Virus record (IMG/VR): IMGVR_UViG_3300046012_000877
Location: 1-21,110 of that record
Origin: a virus
Length of the DNA stretch: 21,110 nucleotides
Direction: 5' to 3' (one strand)
Each line of letters opens with the position of its first letter. The stretch's first letter is position 1. A program made the translations under genes and the position numbers. Shown in pieces: positions 5,257 through 12,398 of this stretch. The notes under the pieces were generated by a model, which was not told the origin of the DNA, made no database searches, and saw only the letters and a program-made list of their open reading frames with translations.

Positions 5257-6606
5257 GTGCCACCCGTGATCGAAGACCTGCGGACGGCCAAGGACGTCCG
5301 CGACGCGCTTAAGACGAAGCGCGCGAAGGCCGCCGAGATCCGCGAGGCGAACGGCGGATCGTTCGTCGGCCTGTCGGGCACCGACGCCGACGAGGTGCGT
5401 GAGCTGATGGCCGAGACGAACATGCTCGGCGAGAGGCTCGAGGAGCTCAGCGGCCAGGAGCAGTCGGACGCCGAGTTCGACGCCATCAACGCGCGCTTCG
5501 AGGAGCCCGCGATCGCCCACCCCGGCCACGCCGGTACGAAGGGCTACAAGCCGCGCGAGAAGGGGCCGAGCGATATCGGCGCGTTGTTCGTCGAGTCGGA
5601 CGCCTTCAAGGCGTTCAAGGAGCAGGGCACCAAGGACAAGGTCGTCGAGCTGCCGATGGGCAGCGTCTTCAACGGCTACCAGGGCATCGGCGAGGTGCCG
5701 AGCATCGATCGGCAGGGCGCGCTCTTCCAGTCGAGCGGCTACCCGATCCAGCCCGAGTTCCTGGCCGCGCCGATCCCGACGCTGTTCCAGGCCAACAACA
5801 TCGGCCAGCTGATGGCGCAGGGCACGACCAACCTCCCGACCGTCCGTTACGTCACCGAGACCGTGACGGCGCAGGGCGCGGCGGAGACGGCCGAGGGCGC
5901 GACGAAGCCGGAGGCGCAGATCAGCTTCACGAACGTCGACGAGCCGGTCCGCAAGATCGCGGTGACGCTGCCGCTGACCGACGAGTCGTTCGACGACGTG
6001 CCGCTGCTGCGGGCGTACCTCAACAGCCGGCTGCGGCTCTTCCTGCAGATGCGGGAGGACAGCCAGCTGCTGAACGGCAACGGCACCCCGCCCAACCTGC
6101 AGGGGCTCTTCAACCGCTCCGGCATCAACACCGCCACCAGCTACTCGATCGGCGGAGCGAACCCCGACCAGGCGCTCGTCGACGCCGTCTTCCACGGCGC
6201 GATGCGCGTCCGCGACGCCTTCCTCGAGCCGGACGGGGTCGTGATGAAGCCGTCGACGTGGGAGATCGCGGCGCTGGCGAAGGACGGGAACCGCAACTAC
6301 CTGCTCGGCGGCCCCGGCGCGGCCGGATACGCCGGCAACGACCCGGCGACGGGCCCGCGTCTGTGGGGCCTGCGCGTCGTCCTCAACGCCAACGTCCCCG
6401 CCCAGGTCGCGACCAACAAGGTCGCCCTGGTCGGTGCGTTCGCGACGGCGGCGATGCTGATCCGCCGGTCGGGGATCGACGTCGCGATCAGCGACTCGCA
6501 CTCCACGTTCTTCCAGGAGAACAAGCTGATGCTGCGCGTCGAGGAGCGCGTCGCCCTGGCCGTCTTCCGCCCCGCCGGCTTCGCCGCGGTCACCTCGGCC
6601 GCCTAG
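5257..6606 (+). CDS. Major capsid protein, HK97 fold
   Basis: This 449-residue protein builds the icosahedral shell. Residues 1 to about 90 are charged and helical (VRDALKTKRAKAAEIRE, ELMAETNMLGERLEELSGQ) and look like the delta/scaffold domain that HK97-type capsids carry at the N-terminus and that a head protease usually removes. The shell fold follows: E-loop-like residues around 135-200, a conserved strand-rich block (LPTVRYVTE, VRKIAVTLPLTDESFDD), LLNGNGTPPNLQGLFNRSG near residue 275, a VMKPSTWEIAALAKDGNRNY backbone helix and a C-terminal LMLRVEERVALAVFRPAGFA strand. It follows the S49 protease gene directly and has one of the strongest ribosome binding sites in the window. GTG 5257 is the start. 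The assignment is firm, and the cleavage point cannot be read from sequence. Confidence 0.95.
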   Translation: MPPVIEDLRTAKDVRDALKTKRAKAAEIREANGGSFVGLSGTDADEVRELMAETNMLGERLEELSGQEQSDAEFDAINARFEEPAIAHPGHAGTKGYKPREKGPSDIGALFVESDAFKAFKEQGTKDKVVELPMGSVFNGYQGIGEVPSIDRQGALFQSSGYPIQPEFLAAPIPTLFQANNIGQLMAQGTTNLPTVRYVTETVTAQGAAETAEGATKPEAQISFTNVDEPVRKIAVTLPLTDESFDDVPLLRAYLNSRLRLFLQMREDSQLLNGNGTPPNLQGLFNRSGINTATSYSIGGANPDQALVDAVFHGAMRVRDAFLEPDGVVMKPSTWEIAALAKDGNRNYLLGGPGAAGYAGNDPATGPRLWGLRVVLNANVPAQVATNKVALVGAFATAAMLIRRSGIDVAISDSHSTFFQENKLMLRVEERVALAVFRPAGFAAVTSAA

Positions 6607-6903: not shown

Positions 6904-7287
6904 ATGAGCGTTAGCGACTACGCGGAGAACAAGCTGCTCGACGCGGTGTTCAACGCGACGACGACCGGCGGCGGCCTGCCGACCGCCAACGTGTGGGTGA
7001 AGCTCCACACCGCCGATCCCGGCGAGGCCGGCACGACCGCCGCGGCTGGCAACACGACGCGCGTCCAGGCCAGCTTCGGCTCCGCATCAGGCGGCACAGT
7101 CACCAGCGACGCCGATGTCGCGTGGACATCGGTCAGCACGACCGAGACGTACACCCACATCAGCCTGTGGGATGCGAGCACCGCCGGCAACTGCGTCTGG
7201 ACGGGCGCGCTGACCGCGTCGAAGGCCGTGAACAGCGGCGACAACTTCACCATCCCGACCGGCAGCCTCACGGTGTCGTTGGATTAG
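6904..7287 (+). CDS. Phage structural protein, possible head decoration or minor tail protein
   Basis: This 127-residue protein starts MSVSDYAENKLLDAVFNATT. It continues with a beta-rich region containing VWVKLHTADPGEAGTTAA, WTSVSTTETYTHISLWDAS and a GDNFTIPTGSLTVSLD end. The pattern, a short helix with a Y/N/LLD signature, then LHTADPGEAGT, then THxSLWDA, then a terminal beta strand, is one I recognise from small conserved phage virion proteins. These are variously annotated as tail-fibre-like or structural proteins. It is probably a beta-sandwich with no enzymatic residues. A very strong ribosome binding site and its place in the head module favour an abundant virion component, perhaps decoration. 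It immediately precedes the large fibre-like gene, so it could also be the fibre's anchoring partner. The exact location in the virion is undetermined. Confidence 0.75.
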   Translation: MSVSDYAENKLLDAVFNATTTGGGLPTANVWVKLHTADPGEAGTTAAAGNTTRVQASFGSASGGTVTSDADVAWTSVSTTETYTHISLWDASTAGNCVWTGALTASKAVNSGDNFTIPTGSLTVSLD

Positions 7288-7291
7288 TTAG

Positions 7292-10200
7292 ATGGCTGCG
7301 AGCGTCGTATCCACCAACAACGGGTCGACCGGATCGGCCGTATCCAGCAACACGCTGACGCTGTCCGCGTCGGCTGGGCATGCCCTGATCGTCGCCATCG
7401 CGTGCAACACGAAGACGCGGACTGTTTCCAGCATTACCGACTCGGCTGGGAACAGTGGGTGGGTACAACTCGCAGGCGCCGGATCCTCGTCGGCAGGCAA
7501 CACGTTCCTGTGGTGGAACCCCAACTTGACGGGGTCGATCACGTCGATCACCGTCTCGTATTCGGGGACGACGAAGATCTCGTGGGGGTCGCTCGAGGTC
7601 TCTGGGTTGCAGGGCACTGCGGACGGGTCGGGCGTGGCGACGAACGTCACCAGTGCCGCGTCGACGGCGGTGCAGAGCGTCACGTCGACGAACGCCGACG
7701 ATTTCCTCGTCGCCGCGGTGAGCATATCCGGCACGCCGAGCGCGACCGGCACGACCGGCGTCTTCAACTACGAGACGGGCGCGCACGGAACGGGCAGCGG
7801 GATCAGCGTCAGCCTCGCCGACGTCGAAGAGACCTCGGCGGGGACGTACACGGCGACGTTCACGCTCTCCGCGAGCAGCGCCTACACGATCGCGACCGCG
7901 GCGCTGAAGGTGGCGTCGACGGCCGCGAACGTCACCGGCGCTGCCGCATTGACGGGATCGGGATCGGCGGCCGCCGCTGGCGTCCGCCGCGTCGCGGGCG
8001 CAGCTGCCTTGACGGGGACGGGCACGGCGGCCGTGACGGGGTACAAGGATGGCGACCTGATCCGCGTCGTCGCGACGGCGCACCGTGAGGGGAACGACAC
8101 GCTGACGCTCGTCGGGACGATCGCCGGCCAGGCTGCACGCGCCGGGAACACCCTCGCCGCCATCTTCGCTTCGCAGAGCCAGTTCGTCGGCTCGATCGCC
8201 AACTCGACGGGCACCGATACGTGGAGCCTGAACGAGGCGACCAGGCAGAACAGCGCCGCGACGGACAGCGTCTGCGTCTCCTCCTGCAGGCTCACGGCCG
8301 ACCTCGCGGTCGCCGCGACCGTCACCGTGACGCCCGCCGCCGCCGCCGCTTCGAAGAACATGATCCTGCTCGAGTTCCAGGGCGCGCTGACCCTCGAGGC
8401 GGGCACGCCGGGCGGGGGCGACTCGGGCGTGACCCTCGTGACGAGCCTGGCGGCGGCTGCTGGCGGCGCGACGAACCAGGCGGAGTCGACGGTCATCGTC
8501 GGCGCCGTCTTCGCCGGCGGAGACCCGGGGACGCTCACCGCGACCGGGTACACGCAGCCGGCGGGCGCCACCGTCGCGAACTCGAGCGGCACGATCCGTT
8601 TCGCCGCCGCGCTTTACCGCGAGACGACGACCTCGGAGACGCCCAGCGCGGCGCTGTCGTGGGTGACGAGTCGCGCCGCCGCCGCCGCCATCGCCGCCTA
8701 TGGCAAGCCGGTCACCGCGACGACCGGAGCCGCTGCCCTGACCGGAACCGGCAGCCTTTCTGCAGCCGGCGTGCACCAGGGCCGCGCCGCGGCCGCCCTC
8801 ACCGGCGCCGGGACGCTGGCGAGCGGCGGCCGCCAGGATGTCCACGCCGCAGCTGCGCTGACCGGCACCGGTTCTCTCTCGGCGACCGGCCGGCGGATCG
8901 TTCCCGACGGCGCATCCCTCTTCGGAACCGGATCGCTGTCGGCCAGCGGCAAGCGGACACGGTTCGGAGCGGCCGCGCTCACGGGTGCGGGGACGCTCGC
9001 AGCCAGCGGCGTTCGTCGGCGCAGTGGAGCTGCCGCGCTCACCGGGGCCGGCAGCGTCTCCGCGGCGGGAGTCGTGACGCACACGGCGGCGGCTGCTCTT
9101 CACGGCCGTGGCGGATTGATGGCGACTGGCACGCCCGGCGGGTGGGCGTGGGATCGTGGAGCGTTCGACGGCGGCGGCCGCGCGAACGCGATCGCGCTTG
9201 ACCCGAACCACGCGGGGACGGCCGTGATCATGGGCGACGTGTGGGGGTTCTTCGAGACCGTCACCGGCGGCGACGTGTGGTATCCGATCATGGGCGGCGC
9301 GAAGGTGCATCCCAGCGGCGTCGCGGGCGACGTGTACGGCCGGTCGGTCGTCTTCTCCCAGAAGCATTCCGGCCGCGCGATCCTCGGCGTCGGCACCTTG
9401 ACGGGCGGGCCGAGTGGGTGGTGGGGCCATCACGAGCGCGGCGCGCTGACGATCACGAAGGACTCGACGCTGTATGGGTTCGGCACCACCGGTGGCGAGG
9501 CGGGCCTCAACCCGCGGCCGACCGGGCAACTGCAGGCGGTCGACTACGACTCGGGCGGCAACATCGAGTACGTCTACGCCGGCACGAACCAGGGCCTCGT
9601 GCGGATGAAGGACGACGCCGGAGGGACGATCACCTTCACTGTTCTCGGCGCCACCTCCGAACCGAACGACGAGTGGAAGTTCGTGTGCGTCGCGCCCGAC
9701 GGGTCGGTCTACGCGGGCAGCTACGGCGACCGCGGCGCGGGCACGCCCACCAGCGGCACCGTCTACCGCGTCACCAGCCCGCGCACCACCGGCACCGTCA
9801 CCGCAGACTCCGGCGCGCCCAGCTACGTCAACGACATGAAGGTCATCAACGGGACGCTGTGGGCGTGCACGCAAAGCGGCGGCCTCTACACCGTCGCGCC
9901 CGGCGGCTCGTGGACGCAGGTCTCGAGCTCGTTCTTCAGCGGGTGTGACCTCGCGAGCGTCGCCGGCGCCGGGTCGACGATCTACGTCGCGACGGCCAGC
10001 CATCCGAGCGGGTCGGACAAGTGGCTCGCGAAGAGCACAGACGGCGGGTCGACCTGGTCGTGGCTCCAGAACGTCGTCGAGACGGTTCAGGGCACCGGCC
10101 GCCACTTCTGGCTCGATCCCGCCGGCGACGGCGACAGCAAGGGCCCTGACGATTCATGGGCGACGCTGCACATGGACGTCGACCCGACGAACGCGAACGT

Positions 10201-11377
10201 GTTCATGCTGGCCGCGTTCCGCGGAGCGTGGGCGTCCCAGGACGGCGGCGCGACATGGCACCCCGCGCTGAACGGGCTCGGCGGGTCTGAGGTCGCGAAG
10301 GTCGAGATCCAGATCGACGGGTCGATCGAGAACACCGACGTCGACTGGCATGGCGCGGTCACCTCGGACTGGTACGCGAGCATGACTCCGCTCGCGTCGG
10401 CGCCGACGCTCGGCACTGCCAGCCTCGCCGACATCACCATCGGCGGCCACACCTACTCGTTGACGTTGCCGACGACCGGCGCGGCTCCTGACATCACCGT
10501 CGACGGCGTCTCGATCGCCGACGACTACTTCCGCGCCGCGTGCATGGCGCCCGACGACTGGGACGTCAGCGCCGACGGTCAGATCGTGATCGGCCTCTTC
10601 GGCGGAGGGATCCTCCGCGCCCTGCCCGCAGCGACGGCGCTCTCCACCACCGGCGCCGCCAACCTCACGGGCACGGGGACGCTCACCGCCGCCGGCCACC
10701 ATGACGTCCCGAACGCTGCGGCGGCTCTCTCCGGCAGCGGCACACTCGCAGCCAGCGGACGCCGCACCCGGCTCGCCGCCGCAGCCCTCACCGGCGCAGG
10801 CACCGCCACCATCACCGGGGTACGCATCCGCCTGGCAGCGGCACACCTCACCGGCGCGGGCACTCTCACAAGCGGCGGCCGCCAAGACGTCCACGCCGCC
10901 GCGCACCTCACCGGCACCGGGTCGCTCTCCGCCAACGGTTCCACCAGCGCCGGCGTCCTCGGCCAGGCGCACCTCACCGGCCTCGGCGCGCTCACCGCTG
11001 CGGGCGTCCACAACGCTCGCGCAGCTGCCGCACTGACCGGAGCGGGCACGTTGGCCGCGGCGGGCACGCGGACACGCCTGGGAGCTGTGGCCGCCGCCGG
11101 CACGGGGTCTCTGAGCGCGACCGGCCGCCGCACGCGGCTCGCCACGGCGACGCTCACCGGTGCCGGGTCGCTCACCGCCAGTGGGCGCATGGTGGCGTTC
11201 GGAGCGGCGGCGCTCTCTGGCCACGGATCGCTCACTGCCAGCTTCACGGCCAGCGCCCATCCCGTCACCACCTCGTACACGCGAGCGTCGACGCTGCGCA
11301 ACGGCATGACCGGCGGGTCGCCGGCACGGACCGGCCGCACACGCGCCACGTCGCGGAAGGAGCTCACCCGTGTCTGA
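7292..11377 (+). CDS. Large repeat/beta-propeller fibre-like virion protein
   Basis: This 1361-residue protein probably forms a long surface appendage. Domains in order are: a beta-rich domain (about 1-212), two 20-residue repeats (217-250), a second similar beta-rich domain (251-475), seven repeats (479-613), a beta-propeller (about 618-1110), ten repeats (1121-1315) and a short Ser/Arg-rich tail. Repeats follow AAALTGxGxLxAxG plus six variable residues. The propeller carries Asp-box motifs STDGGSTW (915-922) and SQDGGATW (982-989), weaker relatives near 656 and 867, and a GH74/sortilin-like opening AFDGGGRANAIALDPNHAG. Such propellers bind or cut glycans, but I cannot identify catalytic residues. 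The start ATG 7292 has no recognisable ribosome site and lies four bases after the previous stop, so translation probably depends on reinitiation. The next gene overlaps its end by eight bases. Lying in the head module, it may be a head fibre rather than a tail fibre. Confidence 0.88.
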   Translation: MAASVVSTNNGSTGSAVSSNTLTLSASAGHALIVAIACNTKTRTVSSITDSAGNSGWVQLAGAGSSSAGNTFLWWNPNLTGSITSITVSYSGTTKISWGSLEVSGLQGTADGSGVATNVTSAASTAVQSVTSTNADDFLVAAVSISGTPSATGTTGVFNYETGAHGTGSGISVSLADVEETSAGTYTATFTLSASSAYTIATAALKVASTAANVTGAAALTGSGSAAAAGVRRVAGAAALTGTGTAAVTGYKDGDLIRVVATAHREGNDTLTLVGTIAGQAARAGNTLAAIFASQSQFVGSIANSTGTDTWSLNEATRQNSAATDSVCVSSCRLTADLAVAATVTVTPAAAAASKNMILLEFQGALTLEAGTPGGGDSGVTLVTSLAAAAGGATNQAESTVIVGAVFAGGDPGTLTATGYTQPAGATVANSSGTIRFAAALYRETTTSETPSAALSWVTSRAAAAAIAAYGKPVTATTGAAALTGTGSLSAAGVHQGRAAAALTGAGTLASGGRQDVHAAAALTGTGSLSATGRRIVPDGASLFGTGSLSASGKRTRFGAAALTGAGTLAASGVRRRSGAAALTGAGSVSAAGVVTHTAAAALHGRGGLMATGTPGGWAWDRGAFDGGGRANAIALDPNHAGTAVIMGDVWGFFETVTGGDVWYPIMGGAKVHPSGVAGDVYGRSVVFSQKHSGRAILGVGTLTGGPSGWWGHHERGALTITKDSTLYGFGTTGGEAGLNPRPTGQLQAVDYDSGGNIEYVYAGTNQGLVRMKDDAGGTITFTVLGATSEPNDEWKFVCVAPDGSVYAGSYGDRGAGTPTSGTVYRVTSPRTTGTVTADSGAPSYVNDMKVINGTLWACTQSGGLYTVAPGGSWTQVSSSFFSGCDLASVAGAGSTIYVATASHPSGSDKWLAKSTDGGSTWSWLQNVVETVQGTGRHFWLDPAGDGDSKGPDDSWATLHMDVDPTNANVFMLAAFRGAWASQDGGATWHPALNGLGGSEVAKVEIQIDGSIENTDVDWHGAVTSDWYASMTPLASAPTLGTASLADITIGGHTYSLTLPTTGAAPDITVDGVSIADDYFRAACMAPDDWDVSADGQIVIGLFGGGILRALPAATALSTTGAANLTGTGTLTAAGHHDVPNAAAALSGSGTLAASGRRTRLAAAALTGAGTATITGVRIRLAAAHLTGAGTLTSGGRQDVHAAAHLTGTGSLSANGSTSAGVLGQAHLTGLGALTAAGVHNARAAAALTGAGTLAAAGTRTRLGAVAAAGTGSLSATGRRTRLATATLTGAGSLTASGRMVAFGAAALSGHGSLTASFTASAHPVTTSYTRASTLRNGMTGGSPARTGRTRATSRKELTRV
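7940..8041 (+). repeat. Repeat block 1 (2 copies of the 20-residue unit)
   Basis: Two copies, GAAALTGSGSAAAAGVRR and GAAALTGTGTAAVTGYKD, lie exactly 20 residues apart (LTGSG at 220, LTGTG at 240). They link the two N-terminal beta-rich domains of the large fibre-like protein. Confidence 0.8.
8726..9130 (+). repeat. Repeat block 2 (7 copies of the 20-residue unit)
   Basis: The LxGxG core recurs at residues 483, 503, 523, 543, 563, 583 and 603, a strict 20-residue (60-base) period. The consensus is AALTGxGxLxAxG followed by a variable, often basic, six-residue linker. The block ends at the propeller. Confidence 0.9.
10652..11236 (+). repeat. Repeat block 3 (10 copies of the 20-residue unit)
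   Basis: The core recurs at residues 1125, 1146, 1166, 1186, 1206, 1228, 1248, 1268, 1288 and 1308, mostly 20 apart with one 21 and one 22. One copy is degenerate (VAAAGTG near 1266). The block follows the propeller and shares the segment SGGRQDVHAAA with block 2. Confidence 0.9.
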
Positions 11378-12398
11378 TTTCTTCTGGCGCCAGCACGACA
11401 CCGCGAGCGACTTCACCGAGACGCTCCGAGACGAGGACGGCGACCCGGTCGACATCGCCGGCGCCGACATCCACTTCACCATGACCCCGATCCGCGGCGG
11501 CGACCCAGTCATCGACACGGACATCGAGAACCGTCAGAACGGCGACGGTGGCGACGGCAGTCTCGGCCAGGTCGGCTACACGCCGGTCGACGGCGACACC
11601 GACCAGCCGGGTGACTACCTCGCCTCGATCATGGCGTCGTTCGTCGGCGGCCGGGTGCAGACGTTCCCGAACGTCGGCTACATCCTCATCACCGTCACTC
11701 CGACGGCCGCAGGACAGCAGCGCCGCTACGTCGGGATCGAGGATTACAAGCAGACGCTGACCCTGCAGGGCCTCACCTTCGCCGACGCCGACATCGACAT
11801 CGCGATCGAGGCTGCGAGCCGCGCCATCGAAGAGGCGTACGGCGGGCCATGGATGCTCCGAGACGCGGGCGAGCAGAGGTACTACTCACGCGCCGACGAG
11901 CGCACGGTCAGCCTCGACGGCGCGATCGCGATCAGCGAGGTCGCGCTTGACTACACCGTCGGCGACTTCTTCGACCGGCGGTGGGGATACGACCCGTTCG
12001 CCGGCGGCGGGGGCACCTATTCGACGGTCATCACGCCGAGCGACTACCGCCTGCTGCCGACGATCAACGGCCTGTCGATCCTTACTCCGCCCGGGAACGG
12101 CGAGCCGTACACAGAGCTCGAGCTCGTCCGCGGCGCCAGCGTCCGCCGCCTGCCGAGCGGCGTCGACGCGATCCGCATCACCGGCCAGTTCGGGTGGGAG
12201 ATGGTGCCAAGCGGCGTCGTGTTCGCGACGAAGCTGACCGCGACCCGGTTCCTGCGCAGGATGCGAGAGGCGCCGTTCGGGATCGTCGCGCTGGGACTCG
12301 AAGGCGCCGTCGCCCGCGTCCGCGAGATCACGAGCGACCCCGACATCAAGATGGCGATGAACGGCGTAAGCGGCGGCCGCAGGAGCCTGGTGGTCTGA
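11370..12398 (+). CDS. BppU-like N-terminal domain fused to head-tail adaptor
   Basis: This is a 342-residue protein with two recognisable parts. Residues 1 to about 112 (FFWRQHDTASDFTETLRDED, DPVDIAGADIHFTM, GDYLASIMASFVGGRVQTFP, GYILITVTP) match the immunoglobulin-like N-terminal domain of baseplate upper proteins (BppU_N/DUF2479 type). Residues of about 118-342 match the gp6-type head-tail connector: a DADIDIAIEAASRAIEEAYGG helix pair, then SDYRLLP, then ITGQFGWEMVPSGVVFATKL. The adaptor forms the ring below the portal. Between the halves I see no stop and no plausible internal start, so it is one gene. Start GTG 11370 overlaps the fibre gene by eight bases and has GGAAGGAG at 11355-11362. 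The adaptor call is strong, while the BppU-like call is by pattern. Confidence 0.85.
   Translation: MSDFFWRQHDTASDFTETLRDEDGDPVDIAGADIHFTMTPIRGGDPVIDTDIENRQNGDGGDGSLGQVGYTPVDGDTDQPGDYLASIMASFVGGRVQTFPNVGYILITVTPTAAGQQRRYVGIEDYKQTLTLQGLTFADADIDIAIEAASRAIEEAYGGPWMLRDAGEQRYYSRADERTVSLDGAIAISEVALDYTVGDFFDRRWGYDPFAGGGGTYSTVITPSDYRLLPTINGLSILTPPGNGEPYTELELVRGASVRRLPSGVDAIRITGQFGWEMVPSGVVFATKLTATRFLRRMREAPFGIVALGLEGAVARVREITSDPDIKMAMNGVSGGRRSLVV

What the first reader, a model, noticed from the sequence alone, without database searches (positions are those of the whole stretch)
7292..11377. Huge repeat/propeller fibre encoded inside the head module
A 1361-residue multi-domain protein lies between the capsid-associated genes and the head-tail adaptor, where short head genes are normally found. 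The tail-tip genes are at the other end of the window. This placement suggests a capsid-attached fibre that could bind glycans, rather than a standard tail fibre. The combination of domains is the strongest candidate in the window for an undescribed system.
Basis: partly seen in the sequence, partly recalled or inferred. Interest (0 to 1): 0.75.

Follow-up and report, generated by a model that had tools for sequence, protein, structure and literature searches.

The report
Neck-type phage fibre beside capsid genes
A soil-phage gene next to the capsid gene encodes a very long adhesin-like fibre whose small partner protein belongs to a family seen as whiskers on a phage neck, so it is probably a neck fibre and a large member of a widespread, unnamed two-gene fibre unit.

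Summary
One intact 1361-residue frame (7292-11377) lies between a capsid/127-aa gene pair and the head-tail adaptor. Its anatomy is a beta-rich N-terminal domain, 2 strict 20-residue repeats, a second domain, 7 repeats, a weakly supported Asp-box propeller, and 10 repeats. The 127-aa neighbour is the key. It belongs to Pfam Gp80 (GP4 'fiber I') and PHROG_240, and is homologous to Sf14 whisker protein gp31, which sits on the neck in a cryo-EM structure. Surveys of related loci show that Gp80 followed by a 20-residue-repeat protein is a recurrent pair: 60 of 73 Gp80 loci, median gap 15 bp, though most are close relatives. A search by repeat alone found a Gp80 gene in 10 of 17 loci. Domains swapped at this position include collar, collagen, beta-helix, Gly-rich and jelly-roll. 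The pair also occurs in cultured cluster L mycobacteriophages, but at the end of the tail genes. Gene position therefore does not prove capsid attachment. Best reading: a modular adhesive fibre anchored at the neck by the Gp80 protein. Capsid attachment and glycan binding are untested. New variant of a known kind; moderate interest.

The parts
5257..6606 (+). major capsid protein (449 aa), upstream context
   Evidence: Pfam Phage_capsid E 7.9e-39; PHROG_10 E 1.1e-55
6904..7287 (+). 127-aa Gp80-family protein, proposed anchor or whisker protein of the fibre
   Evidence: Pfam PF23140 E 1.2e-31; PHROG_240 E 9e-36; PDB chains 8jou_a E 7.8e-9 and 9c39_K E 1.2e-4; a family HMM finds Sf14 whisker gp31 at E 2.3e-11
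7292..11377 (+). 1361-aa modular repeat/propeller fibre protein
7292..7933 (+). N-terminal domain D1 (about residues 1-214), probably beta-rich; also seen at the start of several fibre proteins in related loci
   Evidence: leave-one-out HMM E 5.6e-5, no shuffled sequence matched; weak in hhalign and in a retrained HMM
7943..8062 (+). first repeat array, two 20-residue repeats (residues 218-257)
8051..8719 (+). second domain D2 (about residues 254-476), possibly related to D1 (not shown)
   Evidence: HMM E 0.15 only
8732..9151 (+). second repeat array, seven 20-residue repeats (residues 481-620), consensus AALTGTGSLxAxGxRxRxxA
9131..10639 (+). proposed Asp-box (BNR/Vps10-type) beta-propeller (residues 614-1116)
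   Evidence: BNR motifs below Pfam cutoff; NCBIfam F510_1955 E 3e-4, below cutoff; 27-29% identity to a secreted actinobacterial Sortilin-Vps10/BNR protein, E 2.4e-8
10658..11266 (+). third repeat array, ten 20-residue repeats (residues 1123-1325)
11370..12398 (+). head-tail adaptor (342 aa) with an extra Ig-like N-terminal stretch, overlapping the fibre gene by 8 nt; possible docking site (inference)
   Evidence: PHROG_442 head-tail adaptor E 1.8e-6 over residues 113-297; Pfam Invasin_D3 E 0.002 over residues 12-60, below cutoff

Best explanation
The 1361-aa protein is a modular adhesive fibre anchored at the head-tail junction (neck) through the 127-aa Gp80-family protein encoded just before it. 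Shown: the pair and its position, the repeats, the family of the 127-aa protein, and the recurrence of the pair in related phages. Inferred: the 127-aa protein sits on the neck ring as its Sf14 relative does; the 20-residue repeats form a thin beta-structured shaft or spacer; and the N-terminal domains and the propeller inserted between repeat arrays are adhesive modules, probably for host surface glycans, held out from the particle to aid reversible contact before the tail tip engages its receptor.
For: The 127-aa protein is Gp80/PHROG_240. Its PDB relatives are GP4 fiber I and the Sf14 neck model, whose gp31 whisker is in the same family by HMM; Sf14 whiskers attach to the neck through the adapter (PMC11821841). 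A 20-residue-repeat ORF follows Gp80 in 60 of 73 loci with at least 1.2 kb downstream, median gap 15 bp, and a search with the repeats alone found a Gp80 gene in 10 of 17 loci. In podovirus-like ctTH923 the pair lies just before a gene annotated as a stabilization protein. Fibre-tip-type domains are swapped at the same place: collar, collagen, Gly-rich, beta-helix, arabinofuranosidase-like. Known neck fibres have sugar-binding ends: A-1(L) and TP901-1 NPS. The propeller resembles a secreted actinobacterial exoprotein.
Against: No virion data. The same Gp80 plus repeat pair lies at the end of the tail genes in cluster L mycobacteriophages, so a tail location is possible for the family. In A-1(L) the carbohydrate-binding module of the neck fibre did not bind the host. 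The propeller and repeat folds were not confirmed: pLDDT 34 and 48, no significant PDB fold match. The link between the fibre and the 127-aa protein is by adjacency only.
Confidence: 0.5

Rival explanations
1. Capsid-surface (head) fibre: the Gp80 protein binds capsomers as a decoration protein and displays the fibre over the shell.
For: It is encoded right after the capsid gene here and in many relatives; PHROG_240 is labelled 'head protein'; decoration genes often sit next to the capsid gene (general knowledge); Hoc-like decoration proteins carry outward-pointing Ig-like domains.
Against: The one family member with a described place in a virion is a neck whisker. Family genes also lie between portal and protease or after tail genes. 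No capsid-bound member was found.
Confidence: 0.22
2. Tail-associated receptor-binding fibre: the pair attaches along or at the end of the tail, and its position among the head genes is only genomic shuffling.
For: The same pair follows minor tail genes in cluster L mycobacteriophages, where the repeat protein is annotated 'minor tail protein'; GP4 gp80 is named tail 'fiber I'; phage tail collar domain proteins occur in the slot.
Against: In this window and in most related uncultured phages it is encoded before the adaptor and separate from the tape-measure and tail-tip block; the Sf14 member is on the neck.
Confidence: 0.2
3. Enzyme-bearing appendage: the propeller is a glycoside hydrolase (GH74-like) that degrades surface polysaccharide rather than only binding it.
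For: The propeller homologue L106 matches Sortilin-Vps10/BNR and weakly a solved BNR glycosyl hydrolase. In phage CN1A the head-module slot carries GDPD and SGNH hydrolase proteins.
Against: No catalytic residues could be assigned; the match is below family cutoffs; single-sequence model unusable.
Confidence: 0.1

Closest known systems
Gp80 family PF23140 / PHROG_240 (GP4 fiber I; Sf14 neck whisker gp31)
   Same: The 127-aa neighbour is a member by sequence.
   Different: In Sf14 the whisker is made of two short proteins, gp30 and gp31; here a 1361-aa repeat protein follows the Gp80 gene.
A-1(L) neck fibre gp82-gp81-gp80 (PMC10966104)
   Same: Small anchor, long repeated shaft, distal carbohydrate-binding module; encoded as an operon.
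   Different: The beads there are many copies of a separate protein; here the repeats are inside one chain and are only 20 residues long. Homology was not tested.
Lactococcal neck passage structure (TP901-1 NPS, PMC10747895)
   Same: Elongated protein anchored to the neck, ending in carbohydrate-binding modules.
   Different: A single protein with its own N-terminal collar domain; no sequence link was found here.
Clavibacter phage CN1A gp49-gp52 block
   Same: Giant domain-rich proteins between capsid-region and connector genes; gp51 shares the D-type N-terminal domain (E about 6e-6).
   Different: Carries GDPD and SGNH hydrolases; no 20-residue repeats and no Gp80 gene detected.
Mycobacteriophage cluster L gp24/gp25 (Baudelaire, DrSeegs)
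   Same: Gp80 followed directly by a protein with 20-residue repeats: clear in Baudelaire, marginal in DrSeegs.
   Different: Located after the tail-tip genes and before lysin A; Gly-rich domain instead of a propeller.

Membership tests
Gp80 PF23140 / PHROG_240 | full-length profile match of the 127-aa protein above curated cutoff | tested here: met
   PF23140 110 bits against cutoff 27; PHROG_240 E 9e-36
Neck whisker (Sf14 gp30/gp31 type) | sequence homology to the whisker protein | tested here: met
   phmmer E 1.2e-4 to 9c39_K; family HMM E 2.3e-11 to FDI99_gp126, listed as gp31 whisker
Neck whisker (Sf14 gp30/gp31 type) | attachment to the neck adapter in the virion | not testable with these tools
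   needs cryo-EM or proteomics
Gp80 + 20-residue-repeat pair (defined here) | 20-residue-repeat ORF close to a Gp80 gene | tested here: met
   window gap 4 nt; 60 of 73 loci; 10 of 17 in the reverse search; Gp80s fall in 22 clusters at 70% identity, one of them holding 69 loci
Neck passage structure (lactococcal NPS) | NPS-type N-terminal collar domain | not tested
   no NPS sequence compared
Hoc-like Ig decoration protein | Ig-like domains recognised by profile and a capsid-binding domain | tested here: not met
   no Ig family in the 1361-aa protein; Filamin E 0.049 only, below cutoff
RcGTA head spike | sequence similarity to deposited head-spike chains | tested here: not met
   no such chain among the PDB hits of either protein
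Asp-box/BNR propeller (GH74, Vps10, sialidase) | Asp-box repeats and propeller fold | tested here: inconclusive
   BNR below cutoff; remote homologue L106 with Sortilin-Vps10 E 8.7e-15; fold prediction pLDDT 34
Tail-tip receptor-binding protein | encoded in the tail-tip block after the tape measure gene | tested here: not met
   in the window it precedes the adaptor; however, relatives in cluster L lie there

The most novel reading that the evidence does not exclude
Gp80 plus a 20-residue-repeat protein is a portable, modular fibre cassette in which adhesive or enzymatic domains (propeller, beta-helix, jelly-roll, collar tip, collagen) are swapped between repeat arrays. It is used by many uncultured phages as a second, non-tail-tip adhesion device on the neck or head, and its members in cultured M. 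smegmatis phages are misannotated as minor tail proteins.
Probability: 0.35. Interest if true: 0.65.

Novelty: new variant of a known kind. Interest (0 to 1): 0.48.

Why it matters
If right, many uncultured phages, probably including phages of actinobacteria, carry a second adhesion device away from the tail tip, built from a simple repeat scaffold into which binding modules are swapped. That would bear on host range and on how virions are held in soil and water, and it would correct automatic labels ('head protein', 'minor tail protein'). Because the pair also exists in M. smegmatis phages, it can be tested in a standard laboratory system.

Tried and rejected
Direct homology of the whole protein: no hit in PHROGs, cultured phages or NCBIfam, and only sub-cutoff Pfam hits. 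Viral scans with the N-terminal domain and with the propeller found nothing. FimH similarity at E 0.005 is a low-complexity match to Thr/Ser-rich sequence and was set aside. AlphaFold of the propeller from one sequence failed (pLDDT 34). A model of relative L071 (pLDDT 48; repeats about 58 with short strands recurring every 20 residues) gave no significant PDB match. Membership of window D1 in the D-domain family is suggestive only: leave-one-out E 5.6e-5, but hhalign probability 23% and no match with a retrained model. D2 as a second D copy was not shown (E 0.15). No propeller homologue in plasmids. A propeller search in 396 actinobacterial genomes gave mostly short Asp-box matches. Fetching cluster L virion proteomics from the literature gave nothing usable.

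Full report
WHAT IS THERE. The window is a continuous head-to-tail morphogenesis block of a siphovirus-like phage with about 70% GC; the source is a 21,110-base virus record. Gene order by profile search is terminase, portal, S49 protease, HK97-type capsid, a 61-aa ORF, a 127-aa protein, the 1361-aa protein, head-tail adaptor, tail terminator, tail proteins, tape measure and minor tail proteins. The 1361-aa frame is uninterrupted. Its third codon positions are 89% GC, like its neighbours; the long antisense ORF does not show this pattern on its own third positions. It starts 4 nt after the 127-aa gene stops, and its end overlaps the adaptor start by 8 nt, which suggests coupled expression.

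ANATOMY. Residues 1-214 form a domain D1. Residues 218-257 hold two 20-residue repeats. Residues 254-476 form a second domain. Residues 481-620 hold seven repeats. Residues 614-1116 form a propeller-like region. Residues 1123-1325 hold ten more repeats. A short Arg/Thr-rich tail follows. The repeat consensus is AALTGTGSLxAxGxRxRxxA, with two glycines invariant in all 19 copies. The periodicity is well above shuffles. The repeats average only 55% DNA identity to each other, so they are mostly not recent duplications.

THE PROPELLER. Two good Asp-boxes (KSTDGGSTW, ASQDGGATW) and weak BNR, SGL and F510_1955 profile hits point to an Asp-box propeller, but all are below cutoff. A search of 296 actinobacterial genomes found one convincing relative, L106. 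It is a 1147-aa open frame with a signal-peptide-like start (by eye) and with Sortilin-Vps10 and BNR domains; it is 27-29% identical over about 390 residues. The likeliest history is capture of a host exoprotein domain. The fold itself was not confirmed, because the single-sequence model failed.

THE NEIGHBOUR DECIDES THE READING. The 127-aa protein is a clear member of Pfam Gp80 ('Podophage GP4 fiber I') and of PHROG_240 'head protein'. In the PDB its relatives are GP4 chain 8jou_a, chain 9c39_K and chain 9mt4_I. Entry 9C39 is the neck map of Shigella phage Sf14 (PMC11821841). The matching gene is FDI99_gp126, which the paper lists as whisker gp31. A family HMM built from the metagenomic relatives finds it at E 2.3e-11. 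Sf14 whiskers hang on the neck through the adapter protein. The only family member with a described place in a virion among those found here is therefore at the neck; GP4 gp80 is named a tail fibre (the GP4 paper was not available).

GENE-ORDER SURVEY. A scan with the Gp80 alignment returned 80 viral loci. Among 73 loci with at least 1.2 kb downstream, 60 carry a downstream ORF with a 20-residue period, at a median distance of 15 bp. Several of the 13 exceptions do carry such repeats below the threshold used. The gene upstream of Gp80 was a major head protein in the loci tested (L003, L004, L010, L088). The reverse search, with the repeats alone, returned 17 loci, of which 10 contain a Gp80 gene, in most of them close to the repeat ORF. 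Caveat: one Gp80 cluster at 70% identity holds 69 of 98 loci, so the number of independent cases is much smaller, of the order of 22 clusters. At this same position other phages carry collar, collagen, Gly-rich, beta-helix and arabinofuranosidase-like modules. The slot therefore looks like a variable adhesin locus.

COUNTER-EVIDENCE ON PLACEMENT. In cultured mycobacteriophages and a Gordonia phage the Gp80 gene lies after the minor tail genes. In cluster L it is again followed by a repeat protein: Baudelaire gp25 has a clear 20/40-residue period (0.38-0.41 against a shuffle maximum of 0.24), DrSeegs gp24 a marginal one (0.25 against 0.24). In Sf14 the gene sits between portal and protease. In Bcep22-like phages it is some genes downstream of the capsid gene and shortly before genes annotated as tail fibres.

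MOST LIKELY MECHANISM. I put about 50% on a neck fibre: the Gp80 protein docks on the neck, the repeats act as spacer or shaft, and the D domains and the propeller contact host or environmental polymers. The adaptor gene next door carries an extra Ig-like N-terminal stretch, which could be a docking site; this is inference. Capsid attachment (22%) and tail attachment (20%) remain open.

KNOWN AND NEW. Neck whiskers and fibres are known (Sf14; the A-1(L) bead-chain fibre; TP901-1 neck passage structure). What looks new is the recurrent unit of a Gp80 protein plus a 20-residue-repeat scaffold that accepts different adhesive modules, and the extreme size and propeller of this example. PHROG_23524 ('unknown function') matches one freshwater version; otherwise the repeat proteins are nearly invisible to the family libraries and to the cultured-phage search.

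Noticed in passing
window 11370-11708: The head-tail adaptor has an extra N-terminal stretch of about 110 residues with a weak Ig-like match (Invasin_D3, PHROG_1084); the adaptor of relative L003 also seems to carry an unrelated extra N-terminal beta-domain (by eye).
   Followed up: partly
L133 (Clavibacter phage CN1A) 3601-11051: Three very large proteins (SGNH hydrolase, GDPD phosphodiesterase, SGNH hydrolase) lie between the capsid region and the connector genes; the GDPD protein shares the D-type N-terminal domain.
   Followed up: partly
L128 8358-9944 and L134 4304-6592: Cluster L mycobacteriophage 'minor tail proteins' next to Gp80 carry Gly-rich domains plus 20-residue repeats (clear in L128, marginal in L134).
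   Followed up: partly
L099 6982-8658: A repeat protein with a different N-terminal domain, 20-residue repeats and a jelly-roll-like C-terminus, lying just upstream of Gp80 rather than downstream.
   Followed up: no
L094 7222-12461: A 1746-residue (incomplete) repeat protein with inserted enzyme-like and CBM_4_9-like regions.
   Followed up: no
L030 3601-4947 and L034 5992-7338: A 448-aa ORF with a 12-residue repeat (67% identity), two genes upstream of the capsid gene.
   Followed up: no
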